From positions 1,018,418 through 1,075,788 of the forward strand of contig NW_006766883.1 of the NCBI RefSeq assembly GCF_000275845.1: DNA of 57,371 bases, in the 5' to 3' direction. Position numbers and translations under genes: made by a program. This document shows, piece after piece, positions 18,047-34,667 of this stretch. Numbering within the stretch: the stretch's first letter is position 1; every line of letters begins with the position of its first letter. Source of the stretch: Dichomitus squalens LYAD-421 SS1 (lineage: Eukaryota > Basidiomycota > Agaricomycetes > Polyporales > Polyporaceae). Under the pieces are notes generated by a model. That model was given only the letters and a program-made list of their open reading frames with translations. It did no database searches and was not told where the DNA came from.

Positions 18047-20393
18047 TCAGGCAGATTGAGAGATGTGGAAAGCCTTAGGCAGAGCTTGTTTTAGGTTCCA
18101 CAGAAACGACCGCACACCCTTGAACGCATCAAGCATCCGGACATCGCTCGGATGATCGAGGACGACCGGGCTATCAAATGCACTGCGAAGGATGCTGTTG
18201 ACATGCAACAAACCTCCCGCAACAAGTAAAGCGAGGAGGATGGCCGGACTGCGGATGATCAGTCCATAAATGTCCACCACAGCACTAAGGATGTGGGCAG
18301 CAAGGAACATCATGGACCAAGCCACCAGGGCACGAGGCAAGCAATAGGCCTGTGCGATAGGTTCGTAACCTAATCTCGGAAGCTGGACGCGTGCGAGGTG
18401 GTTTGCCTGCGCGAAAGGCCGTTAGAAGGGCTGAAAGGCTGAACAGCGCAGGCGAGGAGGACTCGCCACTGTGCCGGCGGTGAACTTGTCCGCTCCGGCG
18501 TACCACTGCAGGAGCACGGCACTGGTGGCCAGCCCGCTCAGGGAAAGGACGATTGATATGGATCCCATGGCTGCCGATATGGGGTTGGTTCTTTGCACTG
18601 TCGAGACCGTGCCGATCCTGGAAACGCACGGACAGTATAGTGAGATGATGGTCAATGAAGCCAAATAAGAACAATCGCGTATAGCTTACAGAGCCAGACC
18701 GACCGCCTGTGTCGGAAAGGGACTCCATCAGGGGGCGTGCGCTCCAAGAGCTGAGGCGATACTGTTCGACATACCAGGTAAGAAGACTCCCGCCACCCAT
18801 GCAACAAGTCAATTGCGAAGTCGCGCCAGTGCATCACATACGTGAGGTCATCCAACGAGAGGAGGTCCATTTGGGCCGAACGCTCCCTCGGCATATTGAA
18901 GAGCAAAGCAGAGCACAACTTCACCGCGAGTGTGCGCTGCTTGGCCGGCCTGTCGTATCGCTTTTGTTCCCGTGAAATCTTAGCGTAGTCCTCGCCAAAG
19001 AAAGTGCTAAACTTGTGCCTTGCTTTGAGCAGTCGAACGACCCACTCAGTCAACCTGGACGGCACGCAGTATGGCCTATATACTCACAAATTGTCCCCCA
19101 AAGCCGTGCTACCCTGAAGTCAGTTTCAGCCCGATCATTGGGTGTCGGTGAGCGTACCTAGAGTCCAAGTCATGTATTCATTGCATTCCGCTAGACAGAG
19201 AGACCACCATGAACCCTCCCCTTTACATAGCTGCACTTAAGCTACGTACTGTCCACGTCAATGACTTGCAGATAGTGCTTGCATTGCTGAGCACTATAGG
19301 GGAAGGTAGAGTTTTCCGAGGTCAGCTGATCTGAGCCATCATATGCATCAGTTTACGGAGACGTCGCAAACAGTGGACGACCGGACCCGCTCTGCCCTGG
19401 CGGAATATATCCACGAGCTCCGTTCTCAACCTTTGGGGCACCTGCCGGTGCGGAAAGTATTCATTGTGAACCCAATACTGTTCTTGCAAGGCGAATCCTG
19501 GAGGAAGCCAAGCGCACAAAAGTAAGCTCATATACATGATGTGATGCAGGGAACAAAGTGGGGCACCATTCTCCGGGGCTTTGGGAGCTGCCCTCGAAAG
19601 CATACGAGTCTCAGCCCTCTGCCGTCCACGATCACGATAGCTCGCATTCGGATAGAGAGCGAGCATCGTCATGCGTTTCGGGACACCTCCCACAATAAAC
19701 CCCGCTGAGCGGGCTCATACTCTCGGAGACTTCACGTACGTAAATGTGCGACGCTGCACACCGGGGGGAGTTCTAGTTCATGACGTTCTGGGTCAATTTC
19801 TTCTATCCAAAAGACGGTCTGAGTCGTGTGGTCCACGAAGTAATACTTGCATCCGTCATCGTCGGTCGCCACAGTGAGGAAGATTTCGTAGTCGTCAGGA
19901 AGTGTCATGCCATCGGTTTCAATTAGCGTATCAAGGCGTAGGATCCATGCCGATATCTTGGCCCAGATGTCTGGATGATCAATCGGGTCGTCTGTGACCA
20001 GGCGCTTCGTTGCATTGACGTAGTACTGCGTTCCCTCGGGGTTGAAGTGGGCGACCCAGCCGACTCCGAGATACTGAGGTCTGCAGGAAAGTCAGCCAGC
20101 AGCAAAGCATGCAGGGGCGTTCAATATACTCTGGGGATAGGAGCGCTGAATGAAGGCCTCTGGGGATCTTGATGTAGGCCGGTGTGGCACTGGAGGGTCA
20201 TGGTCAGCGGAACAGCCTTAGCAAAGCTCGTCATAACGTACAAGGCGATTCTGGCATAGCGCCTGTTCTGGGCTGGCGCCATCGGGACAAGCAGCCCATC
20301 CGTGGAGTAAGTAGGAGGGCACTCTAGGTCTGACAGTGAATTTGATTGGAAGACTGCCTGTGAAGCCTCAGAAGAGGGGACATCATTAGACAT
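18047..20393 (-). CDS. WW-like domain membrane protein of a basidiomycete family
   Basis: The protein belongs to a family I know from mushroom genomes, of unknown function. After about 75 N-terminal residues comes a WW-like module, GWVAHFNPEGTQYYVNATK, then a helix (DDPIDHPDIWAKISAWILRL). A second WW-like half follows, LPDDYEIFL and YYFVDHTTQTVFWIEE. Next are QEQYWVHNEYFPH, a helical linker and FSTFFGEDYAKI. A membrane-embedded C-terminus includes a segment with WYAGADKFT, the conserved RLGYEPIAQAYCLPRALVAW, and at least two hydrophobic helices (MMFLAAHILSAVVDI, ILLALLVAGGLL). Seven or more introns. The tail (FLWNLKQALPKAFHISQSA) and the stop at 18047-18049 are the least certain part. Convergent with IDI1. 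Confidence 0.78.
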
Positions 20394-21698
20394 TACGGGA
20401 AGCAAGAGTGAGACGGGGGCGCAGAGTCTGTTGTAGGTATGTAGATCGAGTTCGCCGACCGCTTAGTTATACCTCCGGCAGCGCCTCGTGTGTGAGAACT
20501 CTAATACACCTTGCGGCGCGCAAGTGGTTCTGCCTGTATACAACCAGATAAGCCCAGATTGAGCGCGGAGACAGCGGCCACAACACATGTGTTCTTCAAG
20601 ACAAATGAAACCGGAACGTACCACGGGGCACACGACGCCTGCAATGCTGTGGCTGCGCCAAGTGGACCTGGGGGCGCGGATGGTCTTGGAGAGGCTATGT
20701 GATTCAGGTTATTTGAAGGTGATAACTGCTTCTAGAAATCACGTAGTGAGAGCAGTGCGATATATGTATCATCTGCCACACCGGAAGTAAAGCTCTCAGC
20801 ATGGTCCGGGTTAAGGGGAGACCGCCGGGAGGGTATTGAATCCGTGGGGCAAATACAGTCGAAGCTCGCTAATCGTTGCGCCGAGGAGCTGGGGTGCACG
20901 CCGGAAACTTTTCGCGGGCAGTATGTGGTGGCCTGACCGGTGGCAGTCCGCAGCGTCCTATTGAGGCGGATGTGAGCAATTCGATCATGTAGAGCAGCAT
21001 CGGGACAAATAGTCTAACATACTCATGTCCGTCTCCAACTGCCTGGGTGAAAGCGAACGATTTGAGGTATTGAAACGCGAGCCTGGATGAGTGAGTGAGG
21101 CAACGGTGGTCGATTCTCGTTCAAGCGCCCATTCCAGCTGTGCTATGCCAAGCACGGCCGGAACCGCTATTGAGACTGGCATATTTGGCTCGTGGCAACT
21201 TGCATGTGCTCATGACGCCGTTCTCCTGTCTCTGCAGAACCATCGGCACCACCTGAGAATGATCAATGGGACCACGTTCTCGCAGTACACTCATCCCAAG
21301 ATGGCTCCGACGCCGCCTGCAGGGTCCTTGGCGCCACCTGACTGTCTGATTGTGGCTGATCAGCTTCTGGAATAGTTGGGCGCGTCCACCGCCTCAGCGT
21401 TCTCTCCTTCTCAATCGCCTTTCAAAGGTTCATGTTTGCCTTATGTGCGCCGCAAGACTTCATACTTCTCCCTTCTGAGATACCTGGCCGATTGCCCTAA
21501 TCCCCGTACTCGGATAACTCATGACGAGAATGCTGTGGTATGCTATGACCGTCTAGTACGGCCTCTAGATCTTCTGGGAGGTAGACCATTTCCGTGTCAT
21601 ACTTAGCTGAGCGTTGTACAGCTGCCGTGTCAATATCAAGAAAGGGGAGCCCGACGCCCCTCTTGCCAAATCCGCATCTTCACTCAGGCTGTTCCAAT
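20394..21698. other. intergenic, no gene seen
   Basis: About 1.3 kb with only short reading frames. I checked it for the acidic DDD-aromatic-KG motif of the neighbouring array and did not find it. It presumably includes the promoters of the WW-like gene and of array copy 1. Confidence 0.4.
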
Positions 21699-22333
21699 AT
21701 GGCACCTTCTGTCCACGTCGACGACGACGTCGACGCTGCCGATGACACATCTCCCTCTTTGAGAGGCCGCCTCGAAGTGTCGACGGCAGCGCCGCAGGTC
21801 GACCAGCTCTCGGTGGCATGGCCGGGAAAGGCATCCTCCTTCCCGGCTTCACCGGCTTGCAGTACGCCTACTGAGCTTGAGGGGTGGGTATATATGAACC
21901 TTGCCGTTCTCGACTCGTACTCACCTTGACGCTCTGCAGGCAATCTGGAGACTCTGAGGAGCTCGGTGCAGGCTCAGGGCTACTTACCTTCGTGCAAGGA
22001 GACGATGATCTACCCCCTGTGGTCTTGAAGGCAAAGGGACGAGCTGCTACGTAGTAAGTATTCATACAACCTTAAGACACGGTGTAATATAGTCTAACTT
22101 GACTTTCACAGCCCCCTGTCGGGCGTCCGCAAGTATGTCGCATGAACCTTTGGCGTTGCATCGTGCTCTTGTGACTTACGAACTGTCTTAGCGACCACTA
22201 CAAGTCTGAGCTCGAGGACAGCGATGACCCTGACGATGAGTGGTACCGGCCCAAGGGCCCTCCGAACAAGCCAACTGCTGACCGGCCGGTACTGCAAGGT
22301 CCCAAAGGTGTCGGAAAGCCTCAACAGGCCTGA
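21699..22333 (+). CDS. array copy 1, small acidic protein with DD-W-KGPP-PT module
   Basis: First of eight related genes; family not recognised. It is spliced from four exons of about 62, 38, 7 and 46 residues. The N-terminus is acidic (VHVDDDVDAADD) and then Ser/Ala/Pro-rich. Introns follow GG (at about 21890), TA (at about 22052) and AA (at about 22133), all in phase 2, and the third exon is a 21-nt microexon. The last exon contains DSDDPDDEWYRPKGPPNKPT, then a Gly/Pro/Lys tail and TGA at 22331-22333. About 153 residues, no signal peptide or membrane helix. It lies 3.4 kb from the next copy. An acidic run beside a basic Pro-rich tail suggests a disordered binding protein, which is inference only. 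Confidence 0.7.
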
Positions 22334-22689
22334 GTGGGCCAAGCCACCAGAAATGACTCGAGCAAGGCTTGGGTGCTTAGCGCAGTCGTTGGAGATGTGT
22401 ACCAGCTGCTCTATGTTGTATACTCTTGTGTGGACAATCGAGAACCATGGACATGGACCGTATGATGCCTTCTAACCACGAACATTCTTCTTATTTCTTA
22501 CCGCTGAAACTATCTTCGAAGCGTATGGCTTCAGTCAAGCTGTAACGATCATATAACTTGTCCCGGAACAGCTGCGTGACGAAAATCGAGCTGAGCCCGA
22601 GGGTTGACCTCCAGATTCATATGATACCACGCGCGACACATACTTATGGTTGTGTTCCACGCCGCTATGTTTCTGTGCCTACATATATC

Positions 22690-23060
22690 CGCCTGCCAGG
22701 CCAGCACGAAGTGTTAGACAGCTGAGGTTACGCAGCCGCGGAAGGAAGTCGTCCATTCCGATGAGCAGCCTCTCCCGCCCCTGCAGTATGCGCTCCCTCT
22801 GCTCCTCCACCCGACGCTAGGCGTCCTACACCTAGCCGTACTTCTCCTTCGGCCGCCTGTTCTCGTCCTCGAGATCTGCGTGAAGCTCGAGTTGTCCTCA
22901 GACATGCAGCGCGCCTGGAAGGCGTCCAAGCTCATATCGGCATCGTAGCGCGGCCTCGCGAGTCGGCGTGATGTGCTTGAATGTGCACGAGATGCCGCAG
23001 ACATCACAGACGATACGTAGGCGGAGTAGGCGATGCGTAGACAACTGATAGGAATGCCGT
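22690..23060 (-). pseudogene. decayed coiled-coil-encoding frame with in-frame stops
   Basis: Read on the minus strand, one frame gives LELHADLEDENRRPKEKYG, then three TAG codons in 8 positions, then RRVEEQRERILQGRERLLIG and MDDFLPRLRNL. The heptad pattern and high-GC codons look like a former coding region. Upstream in the same frame stand CDVCGISCTFKHITP and a TGA before the helix. Each stop could derive from CAG or CGA by one C-to-T change. The parent family is unknown; RING-plus-coiled-coil proteins of mushrooms are one possibility because of the CxxC...F pattern. Confidence 0.35.
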
Positions 23061-25676
23061 TGTCGCGCAGAGGTGGGGACATGGGGAGACCTGAGCTGAG
23101 GCCATCGCGGAATACAGTGCCGGCGCGCTTCATGGCGCTTCGTATAGACTCGGTGGACTAGGACGCTAAGGATGGCGGCGCATTTGCACAACATCGTGTA
23201 TCCTAGTCACTGGCCATGTGCCGCCCCTGTTCCGACGACAGTCGTGTCGTATCTCGGCCCCACAACCGGCTTCTATACTAGACGTCGCACGGGAAGTGTC
23301 TCCTTGGGAGTTCCGAAGCCATATTTGCAGCATGGTGGACGATCTAGACGGTTATGCAGTCTTCCGAAACTGCCTGCAAGAACACATATCCGATAATTGT
23401 CCTTAGACGCCAGGGTGGCGAGAAGGTCGGGCTGGAAATATTGTCAATTAGTCCTTGAAGCTTGATTAGTGACCTTAACGCACGTCCCACAAAAGAGGGG
23501 GACGAGCTTCCAACGCACTGTAGGTTCTAATTCGCGTGCTCAAGGAGAATCGAGGGCTTCGGTGAGAGCCAGCGTCCCGGTCAAGCTCGGCAACGATCGT
23601 GCGACGACTGACTAAGCATTTTCCATCATCATCATGAACTCATGTCTATCAGACGCGGTCTGATATTGAGCGTATCGTTGAACCACGATCCAAGGGCCCT
23701 CCTTTCCCTGTTGTTTTATACTGGTGGCTATCAGCCAGAACCTTGTCGAGTTTTTCCCACCGTCCCATTGTGAACCCATTACTCTATATCCATGGTGAGC
23801 AGTTGCAACTAGGTTGGTTGTATGTAATCCCAGTGCTTCCGAACACGCGTCCGGTATCCTGCATGCATTGTAGAACGCCGCCACATAGTCCCAAGTCTCA
23901 GAACAGGCCGTACTGCTTTTGGTCCTGTGATAGCGCACGCTAATGCATGACCTCCACTCCACTACTCGCTAGATCCCGCCAGTGTCTCCTCTAACCGAGA
24001 AACTAACTCCTCACAACACAGGTTGTCCCACTTTCCGCGATTCCGAATAGGATGTCGCACCTCGCAACCTATCGCATATCGAACGGAACTTGGATAAGCT
24101 TTTGCAGACGCTAGCGGAGCGCTGCAACGCGATCCTGGACGAAGCCGCACGGGCGGCCGAGTGGGGGGTCGCTCCAACAGCGGCAGTCTCGGATACCCCG
24201 CAGTCAGCTGGGGGTGCCTCTGGCTCTGCCACGATGACACGGGAGCACCTTCTGCAAATGGAGACCGAGGCAAGCGACTACGAGTTTCTAACGTGCCGTC
24301 GTTCTCTCACCGAGCGAATCATATAGTCGGACATAATTCTCCAGTTCCTTGCAAAGAGGCCACCGCATGACGCCCATCGTAAGTACACCGAGTCCTCCTT
24401 AGGAAACCTGCGCCCTTCCACGTTCAGTGATAGCTGACGTTGCCGTTGTGCTCCAGTCTGCGTTGTCCGACTGAAACAGGATCTGGGCGCTCTCCGATGG
24501 TCGAGGTTGCGGTACTGGAGTGCTGTGCCTCGGGGGGGAGGCAAGCGGAGGGCCAATACCTTTCCATCTCCTTCATGTCAACTTCTTCGATACGGAAGTG
24601 CCAGTGCTCGTGCACAGGCCGGAAGAATCAACAATTTGAGTGCATCCAGCCTTCGGGTGTCGACTGACGTGGCAAGTCATCCTCATCACATCGTAGCAGC
24701 CCGTATCGCGACGGTCGGGGAATGGACCACGCGATCACATGCCACGACTTCATGAACGGCACGCCTCGAAAGTGGACGATGTGCTGAGCGGTTGGCGATC
24801 AGACAGGCACGCCGGAGTGTGTTGTGTGGGCGGAATGCGCACAACGGTCGTGACGGCGTTCATGCCCAATGTGCTCAGCCATTCCCTTTCAGCTCCTCTC
24901 GGCTCCCGCACCGATCATTCAGTCGCGGACGCTTAACGGGTGCAGGGGAAGCGTGACCGTGACGGTGAACGGTCGCACTGGGCGGTAAGTGTCGCGCGTT
25001 CTGGACGAGGCGGGGCTGAGCTGGAAGGTGCTAAATATGGAAAGGGGAAAAGGAAGACCTGGAGCTGGAGGAAGCGGAAGGAGATGAGGGTACGGAGGAA
25101 TCAGGTTGGTTGTCGATAGGCTGAAACCACGCATCGGACGCGGGCTCTGCACTGTAACGTTAGGGCCCCAAGCCGCCCACACCAGCCTTCCATCGCATGT
25201 CATCTACGAATGCGACCTCTTGCGCATGCGGGCTGCCCACATATCTGTGCAAGAAGTCTCTGTGTGGTTTGCTAGACGCACGCGTGCGGTTAGGCGGCCT
25301 CGAGGCCAAACTTCGATGTTCGGAACCTTGTCACTATGGACTGGTGAGCCCATCTATCTCCCTGTAGTGGGACCCTCATGATCAATGCATTGATAACAAT
25401 TACGGGGCGTAGTCTTCACAGCTTTGCTCTGCACGCGTCTCCAGCCATGGAGGGGTTGCCTCGCGGCTTGGACGTATGTCTCAACTCTCGGCAAGTTGAC
25501 GCCTCGTGGTGGCTCTATTTCCATGGACTTCGTGCTTACCGGTGCTATGCGTATTCCTAAGCCACTGCCTACTCAGAAAACGGGGAAAATCGAGAGCCGA
25601 GCGCGATGTCTCTGTGCTCGCACTGCAACTGTTGAAGACCGGTGGAGCAGCTCATTTAGCCAGGGGGACTTCACTG

Positions 25677-25684
25677 TATAAAAG
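25677..25684 (+). promoter_or_regulatory. TATA box of array copy 2
   Basis: TATAAAAG about 90 bases before the ATG of copy 2, followed by a pyrimidine-rich leader with CCAAC and CACC motifs. Similar A/T boxes 50-180 bases upstream of the ATG are seen for copies 4, 6, 7 and 8. Confidence 0.6.
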
Positions 25685-25772
25685 CTGCGCCGTCAAGCCA
25701 ACTGTCTATCATCACTCCAACACCCGCTGGCTTCTTGCGACTCATTCAAACTCACCTACGGCCACAACTATC

Positions 25773-26138
25773 ATGACAGCAGCAACCTCCTCTGTCGCTA
25801 CGCAGGAGGCCGAGCTCCTAACATCTACCGCCATCAATGCCAAACACCTACCTTCAATGACTGGCAGCGTTTCGCACACAGGGGATATTGTCTCCGATGA
25901 GGTCAACTCGTGAGTTGCAAATGGGGCAGAGTCCGACGCGGAACTCACCACTTCTCTATGTAGGGCTGTCGAGCTTGCCGAGTACGTTGTTATAGCTAGC
26001 TCAAAAGCCTATTGAATATAAAGACTGAATGTTTATTTTAGCCTCGATGACGATGATGTTTGGACTCCTAAGGGACCTCAGACGCGGCCTACAGGCACTC
26101 CGCAGAAACCCGTGAAGCCCACAAGGCCTCTGGCATAG
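25773..26138 (+). CDS. array copy 2, small acidic protein with DDDD-W-KGP-PT module
   Basis: Shortest kind of family member, about 83 residues in three exons. The N-terminal exon (MTAATSSVATQEAELLTSTA onward) is Ser/Thr-rich. The intron after GVNTC-like ...VNS starts at about 25911 in phase 2. Then comes an 18-nt microexon (AVELAD), a second phase-2 intron, and the final exon LDDDDVWTPKGPQTRPT followed by a tail of Lys/Pro/Thr and TAG at 26136-26138. No signal peptide. No known domain. Confidence 0.7.
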
Positions 26139-26722
26139 CCCAGGAAAATGTAGTTTGAAGAATGAAAGCGTTCCGCCACGCTCGGATATGAACGGACCGA
26201 TTTCCTGTTTCCACATTCCTGCCTTACAATTCATGCTCTCCTTCTGATACGGACTATTTCCGTGGCTATATCACATCATACCCTGAACACCGATGACCGT
26301 TCCTCACTGATCGCTTTCCAACATTCGCTAATGCATGTATGTGTTCACGATGTGTTTCGGCGTTCACATACTAGGACATTTGACTAGTACTCAGACTATA
26401 TTGCTTCTCGTAACAATAGATACAAGGTTTAGTTGTGCTGCGAGGACTTCGTAGTCATTGGCTATCGCCTCGGATGTCTCACACTCGACCACACGGGCGC
26501 CCCCAGCTGTCACCCCGAAGCTAACCCGACTCTTCGGCTTCCTTCCAGGCCGGACTGCCCTATCAGCTCTAATGCAATCAAATTTGCCTCAGCTTCATCC
26601 GATTGTCTCTACATATAGCAGAGAAACATTGGCAGCAACCGTCCCCTCCCTTCAACCCACTAGTGTAACACGGCGGGCAACGGATTACTTTGATAGCTGT
26701 CAACCAGCAGGGCTGTATCATA

Positions 26723-27192
26723 ATGTCTCCTGTTCTTGATGAAATTCCTACGCTCGAGACTGAGGATGATCCAGACAGACTCGCGACAGATGGGTGCGTC
26801 CAGGTCAGGTGTCCATGATGATCAGGAACATTCTCTTGATAGATGTCTCAGGAACGCACCTAATGTCAACGGGGGGTTGACGAAGCCATTAACCGGGGAG
26901 GCAGACAAGGAAAACACTCCAGCAGAGTGAGCGACTTTGTCCCCTGTCTGTGTGGACGGTCTAACCTCTGCTCTCCAGAGATGTAGACCTGAATGATCAG
27001 GACGACGACGACGAGTTCATTGCGCGAGGACCTCCCAGGCAACCTACCGTCGCTAAGCCTTCTAGTAAGAAAAATACGCCACAGGGGCAGAAGGGGGACA
27101 CTGTGACATCGACGGCGACTGGGGAGTCCAATGCTGTATCTCCACAGGCAAGTAAAATTCCGAGTCAGTCGCATCATAGCACATGGCATTGA
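26723..27192 (+). CDS. array copy 3, small acidic protein with DDDD-F-RGPP-PT module
   Basis: Three exons, about 122 residues. Exon 1 is acidic (MSPVLDEIPTLETEDDPDRL). A 49-nt phase-2 intron ends at TTGATAG (about 26842). Exon 2 (84 nt) contains PLTGEADKENTPAE. After another phase-2 intron the last exon gives NDQDDDDEFIARGPPRQPT and a longer Ser/Lys/Gln-rich tail ending at TGA 27190-27192. The aromatic position is F rather than W, and K is R. A start at 26736 in another frame would avoid the first intron, but gives a basic N-terminus unlike the family and is less likely. Confidence 0.6.
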
Positions 27193-28511
27193 CAATCCCC
27201 AGACGGAGGGCCCTCCGAGCACTATCAAGTCTGCTAAGGCTAGCTAGATAGGCGGCCGTGTAGCCGCTCACAATATGTTGTATGGCTGCAATTTGAACGT
27301 CTGTCGTTGAAGTTTGTCGAGGGCTCACCAGGGGGCCAACCAGAGGGCCAACAACGGTACTTGCTCTGTCGAGGACATGTAATGTATTTGTGCTGACTAA
27401 GTGAATGTAGGTTCCAATCGGAATTCCCTTTGCCACATGAGCTGTGCTCCGGTAGGACTGCAGGACGATGATCTACCAATGCTTTACGAAAAATATGACA
27501 ATTCCGACTCACTATGGAGACCCTGACTCAACTCTTGTATACCATTCCCAGTGCGCAGTGGGAAGTGTAGTCGGACGTAGACAAGATGAGTCTTGCGTTA
27601 ACCTCTAGAGCTTGGGGCTTCTACGAAGCCCTGCTCGGACAAGAACGTAGGTTTCTGCGCCCAGGCGGTCTGACCGCGAGGGCCAGCAAAGTAAACGGAA
27701 TAGAAAACAAAACTCACGTGTCATGCAGTGGTGGTCGCGGCTGTCTAATCTGCCCGGATTATTGTCGAGCGCAAGAGGGGAGCTATCGCAAACTTCTCCA
27801 TCACTGTGTTGAGGCCATGCTAATAGCGGGATCTTCTCTTCAATGAGGGCATTGAAAGGCCCTGTAATCAAGTGTTCAGTGACCTCTAGATTGTTAGAAC
27901 GGCGAGATCAAATCCCTGCCTCAGGTGGGGGCGAGCCCGGCGGACTAACAGCCGGAGAAACCTGCTCGAACACGCGACCGCGAAGAAAAAAAGGTCATTC
28001 AGCAAAGCTCGCTCGCAGGTGTTTTCAAGATCGTGCGGGTGACCGGGCGCAGAAATCCATGTTCAGACGTTTCCGAGTAACCGTCTTTGGGAAGTGCTTA
28101 GGCGCTTTCTAAGCGCCGATGCAGGAATTTGCCGAGCTCCACCTCGGCGAGGTGCTTGACGTGCTTCGGTACCAAGTCAACGTAGCTGTGCTCGCATACA
28201 AGAGTGTGGCAATCACAATCTGGAACTCACTTCCAATCGCCTTCCTATTCTGTTCTTGCAGCCCGACGCTGTCGATCTGTCCACAGCCAAGACGTGGCTA
28301 CCTTACCAGATCTCATGACACAAGCTCTATAAAACGGCAGGAGACATCCGCAGAGAGTTCCAGGCCTCTCATTACATCGGCGTCGGGCTGTTCCGTTTGT
28401 TCCCCAGTCCATTCCGAATCATCTACTGTCAAGCTGAGGTACTTTTGTGACCAGCATCTCCGAGGTTTATCTATGCTAATGTATCTCTCATGTAGTGCTA
28501 GTAGTTTCGTA
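27193..28511. other. intergenic, no confident gene
   Basis: About 1.3 kb between copies 3 and 4. A 124-codon minus-strand frame (27062-27436) overlaps the end of copy 3 and has no family signature. CTATAAAAC at 28327-28335 is the likely TATA box of copy 4. Confidence 0.4.
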
Positions 28512-29790
28512 ATGGCTGGGCAATCCACCAGCAAAGAGGCTAGAACCACCGGCACTCTTGTGGCGGTTTCTGCTTCGCAAGGCTCAACAGCTGATGCGAC
28601 CACGAAAGCGTCGGCCACGGCTTCCCCTAACACGTCTTCATCGCAGGCAGCCCATACCAGTCAGGATCCTGCTCCACTAGTTTCTCTAGCATCGGTAACT
28701 TCTTCATCCACAGCGCTCAGCAGCTCAGCGGTCAACTCCGCGACGGGGAGGCTGTCGCAGAGCCCCACGGAGAAGGCAGCAACGACCACCGCAGGAGGTG
28801 ACGCCACCCTAACCAGTGGCAGCCGCTCAGTGACCCAAATTGCCATCTCGAGCCACACAACCAATAGCGAGGCTGACGCGCCAACCATTTCAGTACACGA
28901 TGTTAGTTCGACTTCCTCTCTTTCGTCCACTTCCCAGGGCGATACCCAGCCCCCCCTGGTATACCCATACCCCTCCCTCTCCATCCTAATTCAGCCGCTC
29001 CTTCGCCGACAATAATCTTGTCTTCTGCATCCTCTGTAATATCCCCTGCTGCCCTCCTTTCGTCTACCGCGGAGCTCCCCTTCGAGTGGACATGGAACTT
29101 GGAGATCCCAGCACCCTCTAGTTCCTCAGTATCATCATTGTCTCAACCTGTTCAAACATCGCCCACCCAGGGTACTGCGGTCATGGGAGCATGTGGGATA
29201 CATGCGTCCGCAATCATAGAACCGTCCCCCTCTGCTCTTTCTGCTACTTCTCTGTGGAATATAACCAGTTCTGAAGGCACCTCTTGCGTTACACAGGCAC
29301 CTCAGCAACAAGCGCTAAACCAGAATCCCGCCGAGACCACCAGCACGATCACGGACAAGCCGGAGGCTACTTTGTCTACCCCCGTGTTTGTCACCGTGAC
29401 CAATGATCAGACGTCACTTTCCGAACCTCCTGTGTTCACGAGCGTCGGCGTCCCTCCATCGGACGGACAGGTCGTCAGCGCCACTCGTGTCATTGCTTCC
29501 AAAACCTCCACGTAAGTGAGTCTACGTCGGTGCAGCCAACAGCAATATGTCTGACAAGCTTCTGACAGGATGGTAGATCTCCAGGATACCGTCAAGTGGG
29601 CGTGATTTTCCGGCACGTCCTATCCTAGTACCGCTTCTGATCACATTCCTTCAGCGATGGACCTGATCCGGACGCCGAGGACGACTGGTGGGCTCACAAA
29701 GGCGGCCCGCTGAGCACGACAGCAATGCCCAGACCCTCAAAGCCACAAGGGCCTGTCGCTGTTGGCAAGCCAAAGCCAAAGCCGCGATGA
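28512..29790 (+). CDS. array copy 4, enlarged Ser/Thr-rich member with DD-WW-KGG module
   Basis: The largest member. A long Ser/Thr/Ala-rich low-complexity region runs in one frame from MAGQSTSKEARTTGTLVAV at 28512 to about 28958. It continues in another frame from about 29018 or 29075 to 29513. The join is unresolved: a GTATAC donor at 28959 with an AG at 29074 would keep the frame, but an indel is also possible. Then come two phase-2 introns around a 27-nt microexon (MVDLQDTV), and the family exon DGPDPDAEDDWWAHKGGP, followed by a Lys/Pro tail and TGA at 29788-29790. The module is more diverged (no P-T after KGG). A TATA box lies at 28327-28335. Confidence 0.55.
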
Positions 29791-30227
29791 AGAGTCAGAA
29801 TGATCCATTCGCAACCGCAGGGGTCGTCTTCGACACGTTATTCGCTCTCTTTTGGCAATGCAACACGAACGCCTTCTGCTCTTGACGTGAACCTTGTTTG
29901 TAGCCTGTCTACTGAGCGAAGGCGAGTACGAATGTTAATGTACCTCATGGTCGGCTCGCCTTCCTGGCGTTGAAACACCGAACAAAGATCAAAGTCGGCT
30001 TCGATTGTCACATTTCGGGACGTGTCGCACAGGACCGACCACATGCGCGCTTTATGTCAGCCCGAGACAGCGTATTAGGTACTGCTTCCTGATACTAGCA
30101 GTCCAAGGACGCTCAGCATAGCAGCACTGCCCATGCTCGACCATTCATTTAAGGGTTCAGCCCAGCTACACTGTGCAATCGACATAGACGACTCTAACAT
30201 ACTCAACTGTCTCCCAAATCCGCCACT
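29791..30227. other. intergenic between array copies 4 and 5
   Basis: 437 bases without a gene. CATTTAAG at 30146-30153 is a weak A/T box at the expected distance from the ATG of copy 5. Confidence 0.45.
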
Positions 30228-30931
30228 ATGACCACAGAGGATTCCGTCCAACTCCCCTCCGAACCTCTTCCGAACACAGACGGCACGGACGTCTCCGACT
30301 CCTCTGCGACCATTCCTGGGATCATTGATATTGTTGAGGAAACGTAAGAGTGCTCAACCTGTAGCGAAGCAGCCCTTGATGACACGGAGTTCCAGGGAGA
30401 CTCTGAAACTCGCCTCTACTGTGGCTAATGCCGTTGCTCCTGCTGCTGCCGCCGTCGCCTTCATCGCCGTGGCGGTTGGGAATGTTCCGGACTTGTAAGT
30501 CTCAGTCCTGAGAGCATCTGTACCCTCCGTCTCACCCATGCTTTCGGTAGAGGGGGCACTGCTCTATTGGATCAGACAGAAGATGTCGCCCCTGTTGATG
30601 AACTGTCGCTAAACCCATCGGGCTCCGAAAGTCTCGCCAGAAACGGAGATGACGCCCTCAGTGATGGGGAGGATGACTCCGAAGACGAGTTCGTTCCTAG
30701 GGGGAAGGGGAAAAAGCCAACAGACACTCCACACGCCACGCATACCCGTCCGAAGGCAGTGGGTAAGGTGAGTGAGAGCCAAATCTGTCTCCTACCTTTG
30801 ACAACAAACGATTGTAGGACAAAACGAAGGATGAAGGCGCTGAAGAGGATGCTAAACAGAAGCAGAATGGCAAAAAGAAAGATAGCAAGAAGCAAGCGAG
30901 TAAGAAGGTTCAGAAGGCTACTGCGATATAG
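30228..30931 (+). CDS. array copy 5, acidic protein with a hydrophobic segment and a Lys-rich tail
   Basis: Four exons, about 180 residues. Exon 1 is acidic and Ser-rich (MTTEDSVQLPSEPLPNTDGT onward). After a phase-2 intron, exon 2 encodes ANAVAPAAAAVAFIAVAVG, a 19-residue hydrophobic run that could span a membrane and has no equivalent in the other copies. After a second phase-2 intron, exon 3 carries DGEDDSEDEFVPRGKGKKPT, the family module with F and R-G-K-G. A further intron (phase 0, GTGAGT) leads to a strongly basic Lys/Gln-rich tail ending TAG at 30929-30931. Confidence 0.65.
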
Positions 30932-31557
30932 AGGAGGGAACTCACATAGTTGTGCGGATTTACTGCTGTTCATGGCTATACAATGTATCGCTCCGTGATG
31001 ATGAACATGAAATACGTGTACAAAACATTCCAGCCGCTAAGAACTTCGGAGGTAGAAGGGGATCGTTCGATTTCTGTGCGCTATGTCATAGCTAGCTGAT
31101 GTGAAAGAGTACAATACACGGCCTCAAGGCACGTTGGGTGGATTCCGAATAGATATACCTGGAAGAAATTCTGCCGTTTGGCCTGTGCAACTCCATCGGG
31201 GTCATCTATCATTCTTGCTCGTTTGACAAGAGGTCTTCACCTTCCCCTCCGACACCTATTGAGCTTACCCTAAGCACTTCTAGCGTGACTTCTCACTGTC
31301 TTCCGAGCACTCCCACCGTACTCGTCCACATGAGCGTCTCCTGTACTCGGGCTTCCATTCACCGCGAGTCCACACTCGCGCAGCCTCACACTGCCCATGC
31401 CATGGGCGTTGGCGCCGCGTAGGGTCCCGAAAGGCTTAAAATCCGCAAGAGGTCAGTTCTGCACACAACCGACTCCGTTCCTATTCGACAATCATCCCGC
31501 ATACGTGGTCAATCATCCTTTCAAAGTCGAGCTACTCGGGTTTCGCAGACGGACATA
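30932..31557. other. intergenic between array copies 5 and 6
   Basis: 626 bases without a recognisable gene. CTTAAAAT at 31435-31442, about 115 bases before the next ATG, is a possible TATA-like element of copy 6. Confidence 0.45.
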
Positions 31558-31963
31558 ATGATTCGAGACAATCTCGACAACTCATTGGTTCAGAAGAAAT
31601 CAGTAGAGAGGTAGGTCTCGTTCACCTGTTGCACCTCACGAGTGGGACGTTACAACTGGAGGCATGCACCTATGCAGCGTCGATCAAATTGAAAAAGACG
31701 TGAAAGCTGACCCTTACCCTTAGACTAAATCTTGCTGATGACAAAGCGTACGTTCCATTCGGTGCTCGTCCTTGAGATGGCTCATGATCATAAGCAGCAA
31801 CGGACCCGAGGACGACGGCGACTTCATTCCAAAAGGGTTGACTGCACCCCCAACGGGGAACACCCCAGCTTCAGAGCCTGCCAGACCTGCGAAATTGAGC
31901 GAGCAACCCAAACCGTCTAGCAATGCTCAGTCGGCCCCGGTTGAAGTAGAGGCAAGCCATTAG
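31558..31963 (+). CDS. array copy 6, small protein with EDD-F-KG-PT module
   Basis: About 80 residues in three exons. Exon 1 (MIRDNLDNSLVQKKSVER) ends in phase 2. A long first intron ends at CCCTTAG (about 31722). Exon 2 is a 24-nt microexon (LNLADDK). The second intron ends at ATAAG or three bases later at AAGCAG, a tandem acceptor that would change the protein by one residue. The final exon has NGPEDDGDFIPKGLTAPPT and a Pro/Ser/Lys tail, TAG at 31961-31963. The acidic run is short here and the N-terminus is the least Ser/Thr-rich of the family. Confidence 0.6.
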
Positions 31964-33087
31964 TCTTTCGCAAACCTAGTTTATCGATGCTAAGGACCCC
32001 CCAGATGACCGGGAAGAAATCGAAGGTCGATTCCGAGAGCCACGGAAAGTGCTGCTGCCCATGTTGTACTGTGATGTAGACAGAGGCAAGACTTAGATAT
32101 CACGATAGGGTATGGAAGAGCGCATGAAGGACTGCATGAGTTGGCTTTGATTTCCGGAAGAATTGACACAACAACTTTGGAGCGCAAGCGTGTGTCTTCG
32201 GGAAAGTGCCGTTTCCTGCGCTTCGTTAGGGGGGTTCTGAACAATCCGAACTATAAAGTACCGACTTGGAAAGGATAACTAGATACTGGGCTTTTATCCT
32301 GAGATCCGAGTCGACAAGCCGACTGGGTGGTTGGTGACTAGTCGAATTGTCCATCGACCAGATTTTGCTGGAAGGCATGACCGGCCTTGACAGGAGCAGA
32401 ATGTGGGAGAAGCCCTTGGAGTCCACAAAGGCAGAGTCGGAGGCATAGTGGCGCTAAATGTGGTTTGCGCCTGCTTCGTCGTCACCCCAAAATGTCAGCG
32501 CCGTCCGGTGTGCAGTAGTACATCAGCGTCCGGCAGATTCCGAGTACATATCGTCACCTGCAGCGCACGCCGCATACACACCCCATCCTCATCGCACCAT
32601 TGAGGCGTCCTTCAACGTTTCAAATTTCGCCGACCTCATGGGCTGCACCCGCAATAGCGCGCCATGTGTGACTCTGTGAAGCCCCACGCACAGCGCCTTC
32701 GCCTTCTAGGTTACTTCTTGGATCGCTGCTCAAAGTCTGACATCGCACGAGGAGCCCGAGCGGACCAGCGATTGCGACGATGCTGCTTGCGTTTTCGACA
32801 TCGCTTTGCTGTTTCTGGAAATCAAGTTCCTGGCTATAGTATCGTGGCTAGATGTCCAACGAATGCGATGCTCATTTGCACTGTCTCTGTCCGGCGAACA
32901 TGGGTCCGCACCTTCCATTGAGCATCCATCGTGGTGGATCTATCTGGCTGGACTCGATGCTTAGCACTGTGGGATTGCGTTCGTCTTCAGAGCGTGCCCA
33001 GCCCTTTCCCGTCGTCTATCCGCGGTGCTATATAGCTGGGAAGCAGGGAAGCACCCGGGCTTATCACCCACACCTCCCCCCAAGCTC
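31964..33087. other. intergenic; right part is the duplicated promoter block
   Basis: The left 850 bases hold no gene I can support. From about 32840 to 33087 the DNA is recognisably the same as 33808-34081 upstream of copy 8, including the GCACCCGGGCTTA leader, so it is the promoter of copy 7. A TATA-like CTATATAG is at 33028-33035. Confidence 0.6.
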
Positions 33088-33580
33088 ATGTCCGCTGCAT
33101 TAGTACTGAACGAGCCCACGGGCCAGAATCCCATCTCCTCCACCCCTGCTGCGCTCGACTCTGCGACTGCTCGCGGTGTCCACGACTCTCCCTCTTCATC
33201 TAGCCCGGCAGCGTACGTCGATCGCTCTCAGTATCATAATCCCGGAGATTGTCTGACTGATGTGCGTGCACGTCCCCAGTGAGCACGTCCCCCCGAGCAC
33301 GGAAAAGGTTGCCGTCGCTGCCGCCGCCGACTCCCTTTCTAGGCCGAGCGACACCGACGCGCAGGAAGGGTAAGTGCCAGTGCTATGTATGGTATGCGCG
33401 CTGGTGGACGTGTGCTCATTGTACGCCCCTGCTTGTTCTAGGATTGCGATCACCGGTGACGATGACAAGAAAGACGACGATGACGATGGCGATGACTGGT
33501 TTCCCAAGGGCCCACCCATCCGCCCGACTGCTCACGGTACCGGCGGCGGCGGCGGAGTGCCCAAGGGAGTCAAAGGATAG
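33088..33580 (+). CDS. array copy 7, acidic protein with DDD-W-KGPP-PT module
   Basis: Three exons, about 117 residues. Exon 1 is Ser/Ala-rich (MSAALVLNEPTGQNPISSTP onward). A phase-2 intron (GTACGTCGATC donor) leads to a 90-nt exon with EHVPPSTEKVAVAAAADSL. A second phase-2 intron ends in TTCTAG. The last exon has DDDKKDDDDDGDDWFPKGPP followed by IRPT, a Gly-rich run and a KGVKG end, TAG at 33578-33580. It shares promoter, intron and exon sequence with copy 8, so the two are a recent tandem duplication. Confidence 0.75.
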
Positions 33581-34016
33581 TTGCAGGGAAGTCATCAGGT
33601 TGAGTGGCCGGCAGCGTACAGTGTCTCTTGCAACCTGATCGACACGACGAATTGAAACATTTCCAGTACATGAGGGGGGAAATGGCAGACGCATATCGTC
33701 GTCAATACCATTATTTCGATGTAGCAACATACGGTGGCCTCAGCTAACGAGCGAGCTGCCTGCCTTTGACGTGGGATCGCTCCTTTCGAGAGCCACGTTT
33801 TCGACTCTGATCGTGGCTGAATATTGTTAATATTGAATTGTGACCTGTCCAGTGAATGCGACGAACGTTTGCATTGTTTCTTCCTGGCGAACCTGTGCCC
33901 GCACCTTCCAGAGACCTTCCGTCGTGCTGGATCCGTCCAGCTAGACCTGACGTCAGATACTGTAGGTTTGCATCCACCTTGTGTACACAGCACCTCCAGT
34001 CGCCGCTCCGCGAGAC

Positions 34017-34024
34017 CTATAAAT
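34017..34024 (+). promoter_or_regulatory. TATA box of array copy 8
   Basis: CTATAAAT, 58 bases before the ATG. The equivalent position before copy 7 (33028-33035) is CTATATAG. The sequence between TATA and ATG is conserved between the two copies. Confidence 0.6.
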
Positions 34025-34081
34025 CGCGGGCCTGAGAAGCACCCGGGCTTAGCGCTTATCACCCACATCTCCTCTCAGCTC

Positions 34082-34667
34082 ATGCACATGCCCGCCGCCA
34101 ACCCGAACGAGCCAAGTCCCGCGGCCCAGACCCCAGCTTCCCCTCCTGCCGCGCTCAACTCCGCACCTGCGCGTGCCAACGAACCCCCCTCACAGGAGGA
34201 CGGCGTGCTGCAGAGCCCGGCCTCAGATGTCGACTCGCATAGCTCGCAAGACGGCTCTTCTCCATCGGAGGGACCCGTTACCACAGCAGAGTACGTCGAT
34301 CTCCTTACCAGGACCGACCCCTCGGCTCGTGGGGCGCGAAGGGCTGACCAGACCTTCACGTTGCAGTGAGCACTTCGCCCGTCGCGCCGATCAGGTTGCC
34401 GTCGCCGTCGCTGTCGCCGCCGGGGCGCCGGAAGGGTGAGTACCAGTGCCAGACATGATTTGCGTGGTGGTCGAAGTATGCTCATGATACGCCCTTGCTT
34501 GCTCTAGGCCAGCGACCACTCGTAAAGATGACGCGGTAGAGGACGATGACGATGACTGGTTCGTTGACAAGGGCGGACCCACCCCCCCGACTGGCACAGT
34601 GAAGAGCAACATAAGGCCGACGGGAGTTAAGACCCAGGTAGCCCAGGAGCCCAAGAAGCCCAGTTGA
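34082..34667 (+). CDS. array copy 8, acidic protein with DDDDD-W-KGG-PT module
   Basis: Three exons, about 147 residues. The N-terminus resembles copy 7 (NEPSPAAQTPASPPAALNSA against NEPTGQNPISSTPAALDSAT) but exon 1 is longer, with a Ser/Asp-rich end. Phase-2 introns at the same places as copy 7 flank a 69-nt exon that starts with EHFARRADQVAVAVAVAAG. The last exon has AVEDDDDDWFVDKGGPTPPT and a Lys/Pro tail, TGA at 34665-34667. Intron 2 aligns base for base over much of its length with intron 2 of copy 7. Confidence 0.75.

What the first reader, a model, noticed from the sequence alone, without database searches (positions are those of the whole stretch)
21699..34667. Array of eight related small acidic genes with no recognised family
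Eight co-oriented genes over 13 kb share a C-terminal module: an Asp/Glu run, then W or F, two residues, K or R, G, and usually a P-T four to five residues on. A Pro/Lys tail follows. Examples are DDEWYRPKGPPNKPT, DDDDVWTPKGPQTRPT, DDDDEFIARGPPRQPT, GDDWFPKGPPIRPT and DDDDWFVDKGGPTPPT. The N-terminal halves cannot be aligned across the array, so the module is under constraint while the rest diverges fast. No signal peptide or known domain is visible. It looks like a lineage-specific, expanding family of disordered proteins; a function is not proposed.
Basis: partly seen in the sequence, partly recalled or inferred. Interest (0 to 1): 0.88.

Follow-up and report, generated by a model that had tools for sequence, protein, structure and literature searches.

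The report
Fungal cluster sharing one short motif
A fungus carries eight neighbouring, related genes, mostly for small acidic and probably floppy proteins, that have drifted apart almost everywhere except in one short motif, perhaps a docking site for a shared but unknown partner.

Summary
Eight plus-strand genes (21699-34667) each carry an acidic run, [W/F], x2-3, [K/R]-G, x4, [P/T]-T. Leave-one-out scoring puts each of the eight above every other 17-residue word in 257 kb (514,636 words scanned). Two consensus queries of the 40.35-Mb genome hit only this array (6 of 6 and 6 of 6 hits; 7 of 8 genes found). Gene structure agrees: the intron before the module exon is phase 2 in 8 of 8, and the nine introns above it are phase 2 in the models chosen. 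Only g7/g8 align as DNA beyond short stretches. No Pfam family and no significant PDB match.

Corrections: spacing to P-T is fixed; g3, g5 and g6 run 35-52 residues past it; g4 is long, Ser/Thr-rich and has an unresolved frame; g7 against g8 gives dN/dS about 0.5; "lineage-specific" could not be tested.

Best reading: an old single-locus tandem family of disordered proteins that keeps one docking motif. The acidic-activation-domain, pheromone and dikaritin-precursor readings were tested and not met. Partner and function are unknown. It is a new orphan family of a familiar kind.

The parts
21699..22333 (+). g1: exons 21699-21883, 21940-22053, 22112-22132 (21 nt), 22192-22333; 153 aa; box DDEWYRPKGPPNKPT
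25773..26138 (+). g2: exons 25773-25909, 25964-25981 (18 nt), 26042-26138; 83 aa; box DDDDVWTPKGPQTRPT; TATA motif 96 nt upstream of the ATG
26723..27247 (+). g3: exons 26723-26793, 26843-26926, 26979-27147, 27203-27247; 122 aa; box DDDDEFIARGPPRQPT; last intron phase 0 with a GC donor
28512..29790 (+). g4: Ser/Thr-rich protein; start and internal join uncertain; 27-nt exon 29569-29595; module exon 29655-29790; box EDDWWAHKGGPLSTT; TATA motif 184 nt upstream of the assumed ATG
30228..30931 (+). g5: exons 30228-30343, 30396-30494, 30551-30767, 30818-30931; 181 aa; box EDEFVPRGKGKKPT; Ala/Val-rich stretch in exon 2; very basic tail
31558..31963 (+). g6: chosen model exons 31558-31610, 31724-31747 (24 nt), 31798-31963; 80 aa; box EDDGDFIPKGLTAPPT; one of ten possible chains, so everything before the module exon is uncertain
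33088..33580 (+). g7: exons 33088-33212, 33280-33369, 33442-33580; 117 aa; box GDDWFPKGPPIRPT; TATA motif 59 nt upstream of the ATG
34082..34667 (+). g8: exons 34082-34290, 34367-34435, 34508-34667; 145 aa; box DDDDWFVDKGGPTPPT; TATA motif 64 nt upstream of the ATG
32853..33087 (+). promoter and 5' leader of g7, 70% identical to 33846-34081 of g8: trace of the one recognisable tandem duplication
22340..25760 (.). spacer between g1 and g2 without a recognisable family member; holds two stretches that have a second copy elsewhere on the same contig

Best explanation
A single-locus tandem array of eight paralogous genes in a basidiomycete. SHOWN: a common motif with fixed K/R-G-x4-[P/T]-T spacing, one orientation, phase-2 intron before the module exon in 8 of 8, and no other copy found by two consensus queries of the genome. 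INFERRED: the products are soluble intracellular disordered proteins. The acidic-aromatic-basic box is a linear docking motif that binds one shared partner: the aromatic goes into a pocket, the acidic run onto a basic patch, and K/R-G-x4-P-T continues as an extended chain. The freely diverging heads (and in g3, g5 and g6 the tails) distinguish the copies. Phase-2 introns on both sides make upstream exons frame-neutral, so whole exons can be lost or gained without breaking the frame of the module. The partner is not identified; a nuclear basic partner of the histone or coactivator sort is my first guess, no more.
For: Leave-one-out PSSM separates 8 of 8 from all other words. Consensus queries hit the array only: 6 of 6 and 6 of 6 hits. 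Introns upstream of the module: phase 2 in 15 of 15 for the seven complete models and in the last 2 of g4 (frame translated); g4's uncertain join is not counted. Within 44-120 nt of the module acceptor there is one donor of my strong pattern in 7 of 8 genes and two in g7. The frame used has the best codon score of six in 7 of 7. Net charge is -4 to -24 before the K/R of the box; from there on it is +4 to +11 in 6 of 7 and 0 in g6. In g2, g3, g6 and g7 the box holds the only W/F/Y of the protein (counts, sequences). A TATA motif lies within 250 nt upstream in 4 of 8 genes (within 150 nt in 3), against 180 of 5,723 window stretches of 150 nt, which suggests regulated expression.
Against: No transcript or protein evidence. 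The models were chosen by hand for open frames and canonical sites; g6 had ten possible chains, and g6 and g7 have an in-frame ATG in the unspliced frame, so short unspliced forms are not excluded there. Homologous introns are not independent events. The consensus queries were made from the members, missed g6, and single-member queries mostly found only themselves, so distant copies elsewhere could be missed. g4 has an unresolved frame and is neither small nor shown to be acidic. AlphaFold on the g1 module exon gives 28 of 46 residues at pLDDT 70-90 and none under 50, with pTM 0.17 and no output from DSSP, so it does not confirm disorder. g2 falls on the folded side of the charge-hydropathy line. 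No partner was tested.
Confidence: 0.42

Rival explanations
1. Acidic transcriptional activation-domain-like microproteins: the acidic run keeps the W/F exposed for coactivators such as Mediator, and the products tune transcription by recruitment or competition.
For: Acidic residues beside aromatic ones in disordered protein is the composition named by the acidic exposure model (PMC10550315, passages seen).
Against: The first 39-residue rule printed there (charge at most -9, W+F+Y+L at least 7, and the diagonal term) is met by 0 of 832 tiles over eight proteins, g4 only from 28907 on. The same paper's later, more relaxed rule was not applied, and the rule was made for human factors. The fixed K/R-G-x4-P-T is unexplained.
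Confidence: 0.09
2. Histone-chaperone-like polyampholytes: acidic run plus aromatic binds H2A-H2B, basic tail binds DNA.
For: Charge reversal at the box in 6 of 7. Acidic-aromatic histone-binding segments are known from FACT and others (recalled; seen only as a listing with starts of abstracts).
Against: Profile searches of solved structures give best E-values of 0.14 and 0.16, to a glycosyltransferase and a fimbrial protein. No localisation data.
Confidence: 0.1
3. Stress-induced hydrophilin or LEA-like protectants, with the motif a relic of ancestry rather than a binding site.
For: Hydrophilic, acidic proteins with 0 or 1 Cys (7 of 7 models); TATA motif in 4 of 8 promoters.
Against: A protectant needs no motif of fixed spacing; the heads have diverged past alignment while the box has not.
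Confidence: 0.1
4. Precursors of ribosomally made peptides (dikaritin type).
For: Small tandem genes with one constant and one variable part.
Against: The five UstYa matches listed for this genome lie on C27 and C11, none on C1 (such counts are lower bounds). No repeated core and no signal peptide seen by eye. Other basidiomycete precursor classes and their enzymes were not searched.
Confidence: 0.03
5. Pheromone precursors of a B mating locus.
For: Tandem, short, fast-diverging genes in a basidiomycete.
Against: 0 of 8 predicted proteins end in a CaaX box. All 23 STE3 receptor matches listed lie on C32.
Confidence: 0.005
6. Chance or relaxed open frames in a duplicated non-coding region.
For: Only g7/g8 align well as DNA, and exon 1 of that pair is no better conserved than its promoter (62% against 70%). 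g4's frame is unresolved.
Against: Leave-one-out scores, shared intron phase and codon scores, seven complete frames; dN/dS about 0.5 in g7/g8.
Confidence: 0.04

Closest known systems
Lineage-restricted tandem orphan gene families of fungi (general kind, recalled)
   Same: Tandem, co-oriented, mostly short, fast-diverging genes without a Pfam domain
   Different: Here one fixed-spacing linear motif and the phase-2 exon structure survive while DNA similarity is gone in all but one pair, and two consensus queries found no dispersed copy
Acidic transcriptional activation domains
   Same: Acidic run beside aromatic residue in probably disordered protein
   Different: Fails the first published tile rule (0 of 832 tiles); the constant K/R-G-x4-P-T is no part of that model
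Acidic-aromatic histone-binding segments of chaperones such as FACT (recalled)
   Same: Acidic stretch with embedded aromatic, basic region nearby
   Different: No significant sequence match to a solved structure; binding not tested

Membership tests
One paralogous family (the eight genes) | Motif recognisable from the other members | tested here: met
   Leave-one-out, 8 of 8 above all others
One paralogous family (the eight genes) | Shared gene structure | tested here: met
   Phase 2 in 8 of 8 introns before the module exon and 9 of 9 above them in the chosen models; hand-made models, g6 ambiguous
One paralogous family (the eight genes) | DNA similarity between members | tested here: inconclusive
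   g7/g8 align over hundreds of bases; otherwise short matches only, best g1/g7, 61 nt, 72%, E 0.003
Any Pfam-A family | Match at E 0.001 or over the curated cut-off | tested here: not met
   0 of 7 complete models and 0 of 2 long frames of g4
Acidic activation domain | First 39-residue tile rule of PMC10550315 | tested here: not met
   0 of 832 tiles; the relaxed rule was not applied
Basidiomycete mating pheromone precursor | C-terminal CaaX | tested here: not met
   0 of 8
Basidiomycete mating pheromone precursor | STE3 receptor genes close by | tested here: not met
   All 23 listed matches on C32
Dikaritin-type RiPP precursor | UstYa-family enzyme close by | tested here: not met
   5 listed matches on C27 and C11, none on C1
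Histone chaperone | Binding to H2A-H2B | not testable with these tools
   Needs biochemistry
Lineage-specific family | Absent outside close relatives | not testable with these tools
   Protein database switched off; no relatives of this genome held
Intrinsically disordered proteins | Charge-hydropathy on disordered side, low model confidence | tested here: inconclusive
   6 of 7 on the disordered side, g2 not, g4 not computed; AlphaFold of one module exon has no residue under pLDDT 50 but pTM 0.17

The most novel reading that the evidence does not exclude
A hypervariable single-locus recognition or adaptor array: eight disordered proteins present different, freely diverging heads through one shared docking motif, so that a single conserved partner is linked to many species- or strain-specific outputs (for example self/non-self discrimination). 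The motif would be a new linear-motif class.
Probability: 0.1. Interest if true: 0.7.

Novelty: new member of a known kind. Interest (0 to 1): 0.42.

Why it matters
Families whose sequence has turned over except for one short motif are hard to find by homology search. Here gene structure and a leave-one-out profile tie eight such genes together at one locus, giving a defined motif whose partner can be fished for directly. If the partner is conserved, this would be a handle on what fast-evolving orphan genes of mushrooms do.

Tried and rejected
Protein homology over public genomes could not be made: the database is switched off. Profile searches of the PDB gave nothing significant: best E 0.14 and 0.16. 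Pfam gave one chance match, PF12628 at E 2 to g5, and MlrC_C at E 0.09 to a g4 frame. Alignment-based searches of viral and prokaryote contigs were not possible because the alignment is not conserved enough. First activation-domain rule: 0 of 832 tiles. Pheromone and dikaritin readings. Positive selection: not seen in g7/g8 (112 codons, dS near saturation). The N-terminal part of g1 as a query finds only its own exons; that of g5 finds its own exons and one weak match on C113 at E 0.06 with a stop inside. The bacterial promoter scan does not apply to a fungus and was ignored. Paper searches for a description of such a family: searches listed none; one search listed 2; one search listed 10 of 71, none of the ten holding the phrase 'small acidic proteins'; of these only titles and starts of abstracts were seen. 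A search for four module strings (four of the eight genes) listed no paper. One search (symmetric exons) listed 4 plant papers of no use. Subscription papers and preprints are not held, so none of this shows that the family is undescribed.
Full report
WHAT IS THERE. The window lies at 1,018,418-1,075,788 of a 3.41-Mb contig in a 40.35-Mb genome. Short introns, GC 55% and a cluster of STE3 receptor matches on another contig point to a basidiomycete, probably a mushroom-forming one; the species was not identified. Between 21,699 and 34,667 there are eight plus-strand genes whose module exon encodes an acidic run, W or F, two or three residues, K or R, G, exactly four residues, P (T in g4) and T.

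IS IT MORE THAN CHANCE. A profile made from seven of the eight 17-residue modules scores the eighth above every other word in the six-frame translation, for 8 of 8: 0 of 114,628 others in the window and none of the others among 514,636 words in 257 kb (12,078 bases read N). The lowest member scores 21.6 bits, the best non-member 17.3. The eight were picked by the motif, so this shows mutual likeness, not a blind discovery. Two consensus queries over the whole genome gave six hits each, all in the array, together 7 of 8 genes. g6 was missed by both. Of four single-member queries, three found only themselves and the g7 query also found g3 at E 0.04, so very diverged copies elsewhere are not excluded.

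GENE STRUCTURE. This is the best independent evidence. The intron directly before the module exon is phase 2 in 8 of 8. In the models chosen the nine introns above it are phase 2 as well, 17 of 17 in all (15 in seven complete models; the last two of g4 by the frame; g4's uncertain join not counted). The two introns after the module (g3, g5) are phase 0. The module begins 0-12 residues into its exon in seven genes and about 40 in g5. The exon before it is 18-27 nt in g1, g2, g4 and g6 and 69-99 nt in g3, g5, g7 and g8. Without splicing, the module frame closes within 4-6 codons upstream in g1, g2, g3, g4 and g8; in g5 it is open for 40 codons but has no ATG; in g6 and g7 it is open for 18 and 22 codons with an ATG, so short unspliced forms are not excluded there. 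The frames used have the best codon score of six in 7 of 7, with a small training set. The models were made by hand, g6 had ten possible chains, and homologous introns are not independent events. Exons between two phase-2 introns are frame-neutral, so they can be lost or gained without harming the module.

DIVERGENCE. Only g7/g8 align over hundreds of bases as DNA; the next best match is 61 nt of g1 and g7 at 72%, E 0.003. In g7/g8, promoter identity is 70%, exon 1 62%, intron 1 48% (shuffled mean 45%), exon 2 74%, intron 2 76%, exon 3 63% and 3' flank 53%. dN is 0.50 and dS 0.98 over 112 codons; before the module 0.55 and 1.36, module plus tail 0.42 and 0.45. Coding sequence thus diverges about as fast as non-coding sequence, with weak or relaxed constraint and no sign of positive selection; the numbers are small and dS is near saturation. 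No further copy, whole or decayed, scored near the members in 257 kb.

PROTEINS. pI is 4.3-4.8 in 7 of 7 models, and 6 of 7 lie on the disordered side of the charge-hydropathy line; g2 does not and g4 was not computed. Net charge is -4 to -24 before the K/R of the box; from there on +4 to +11 in six and 0 in g6. In g2, g3, g6 and g7 the box holds the only aromatic residues of the protein. An AlphaFold model of the g1 module exon with the other seven as alignment has mean pLDDT 70 (28 of 46 residues at 70-90, none under 50), pTM 0.17, and DSSP gave nothing; eight rows is a shallow alignment, and this neither shows a fold nor proves disorder. A weaker second box, P-x-[GA]-V-[GK]-[KG], follows at 14-16 residues; leave-one-out scanning recovers the place I assigned in 6 of 7 genes, but the permutation p is below 0.05 only in g1, g5 and g7 and 0.051 in g4. 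TATA motifs lie 59-184 nt upstream of the ATG in 4 of 8 genes (g2, g4, g7, g8), against 180 of 5,723 window stretches of 150 nt.

WHAT IT IS NOT. No Pfam family and no significant match to a solved structure. Not mating pheromones: no CaaX in 8 of 8 models, and all 23 listed STE3 matches are on C32. Not dikaritin precursors by neighbourhood: the five listed UstYa matches are on C27 and C11. Not a canonical acidic activation domain: 0 of 832 tiles meet the first published rule (rule read in passages of PMC10550315; the later relaxed rule was not applied).

HOW IT MOST LIKELY WORKS. One motif of fixed spacing in otherwise free-running sequence is what a docking motif for one conserved partner would leave behind (inference). 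The aromatic with its acidic neighbours would be the anchor and the K/R-G-x4-P-T an extended continuation. The partner is unknown. I give about 0.42 to the whole statement, and over 0.9 to the narrower claim that these are eight real paralogous genes.

NOVELTY. A new orphan family as far as Pfam and the PDB show, but of a known kind: fast-evolving tandem gene families are common in fungi (recalled). What is unusual is how completely everything but the motif and the exon phases has turned over while the family, as far as found, stayed at one locus. Whether it is lineage-specific, or described under another name, could not be settled here.

Noticed in passing
window 24032-25147: Spacer stretch 78% identical to C1:904021-905187, about 137 kb upstream; the upstream copy (L037) holds a 136-residue open frame whose beginning resembles one read by eye in the spacer.
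   Followed up: partly
window 22759-22957: About 200 bases 90% identical to C1:1796608-1796807, perhaps a repeat remnant.
   Followed up: no
window 28512-29511: g4 has two long Ser/Thr-rich open frames in different phases; five in-frame GT-AG joins exist in the range tried, none with a good donor: an unusual intron, an assembly error or a frame-shift.
   Followed up: partly
C32:276041-305343 of the same genome: Dense cluster of STE3 receptor matches (23 exon-level hits, three with stops in the read-through frame), the likely B mating-type locus.
   Followed up: no
window 26843-26926: The g3 model holds the string DKENTPAE, which resembles a KEN-box degron (recalled motif); it is not in the other models.
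   Followed up: no
window 19700-20400, minus strand: A neighbouring minus-strand stretch encodes a peptide resembling a WW-like segment (read by eye, recalled). That peptide itself was not given to Pfam; three nearby frames were and matched nothing.
   Followed up: no
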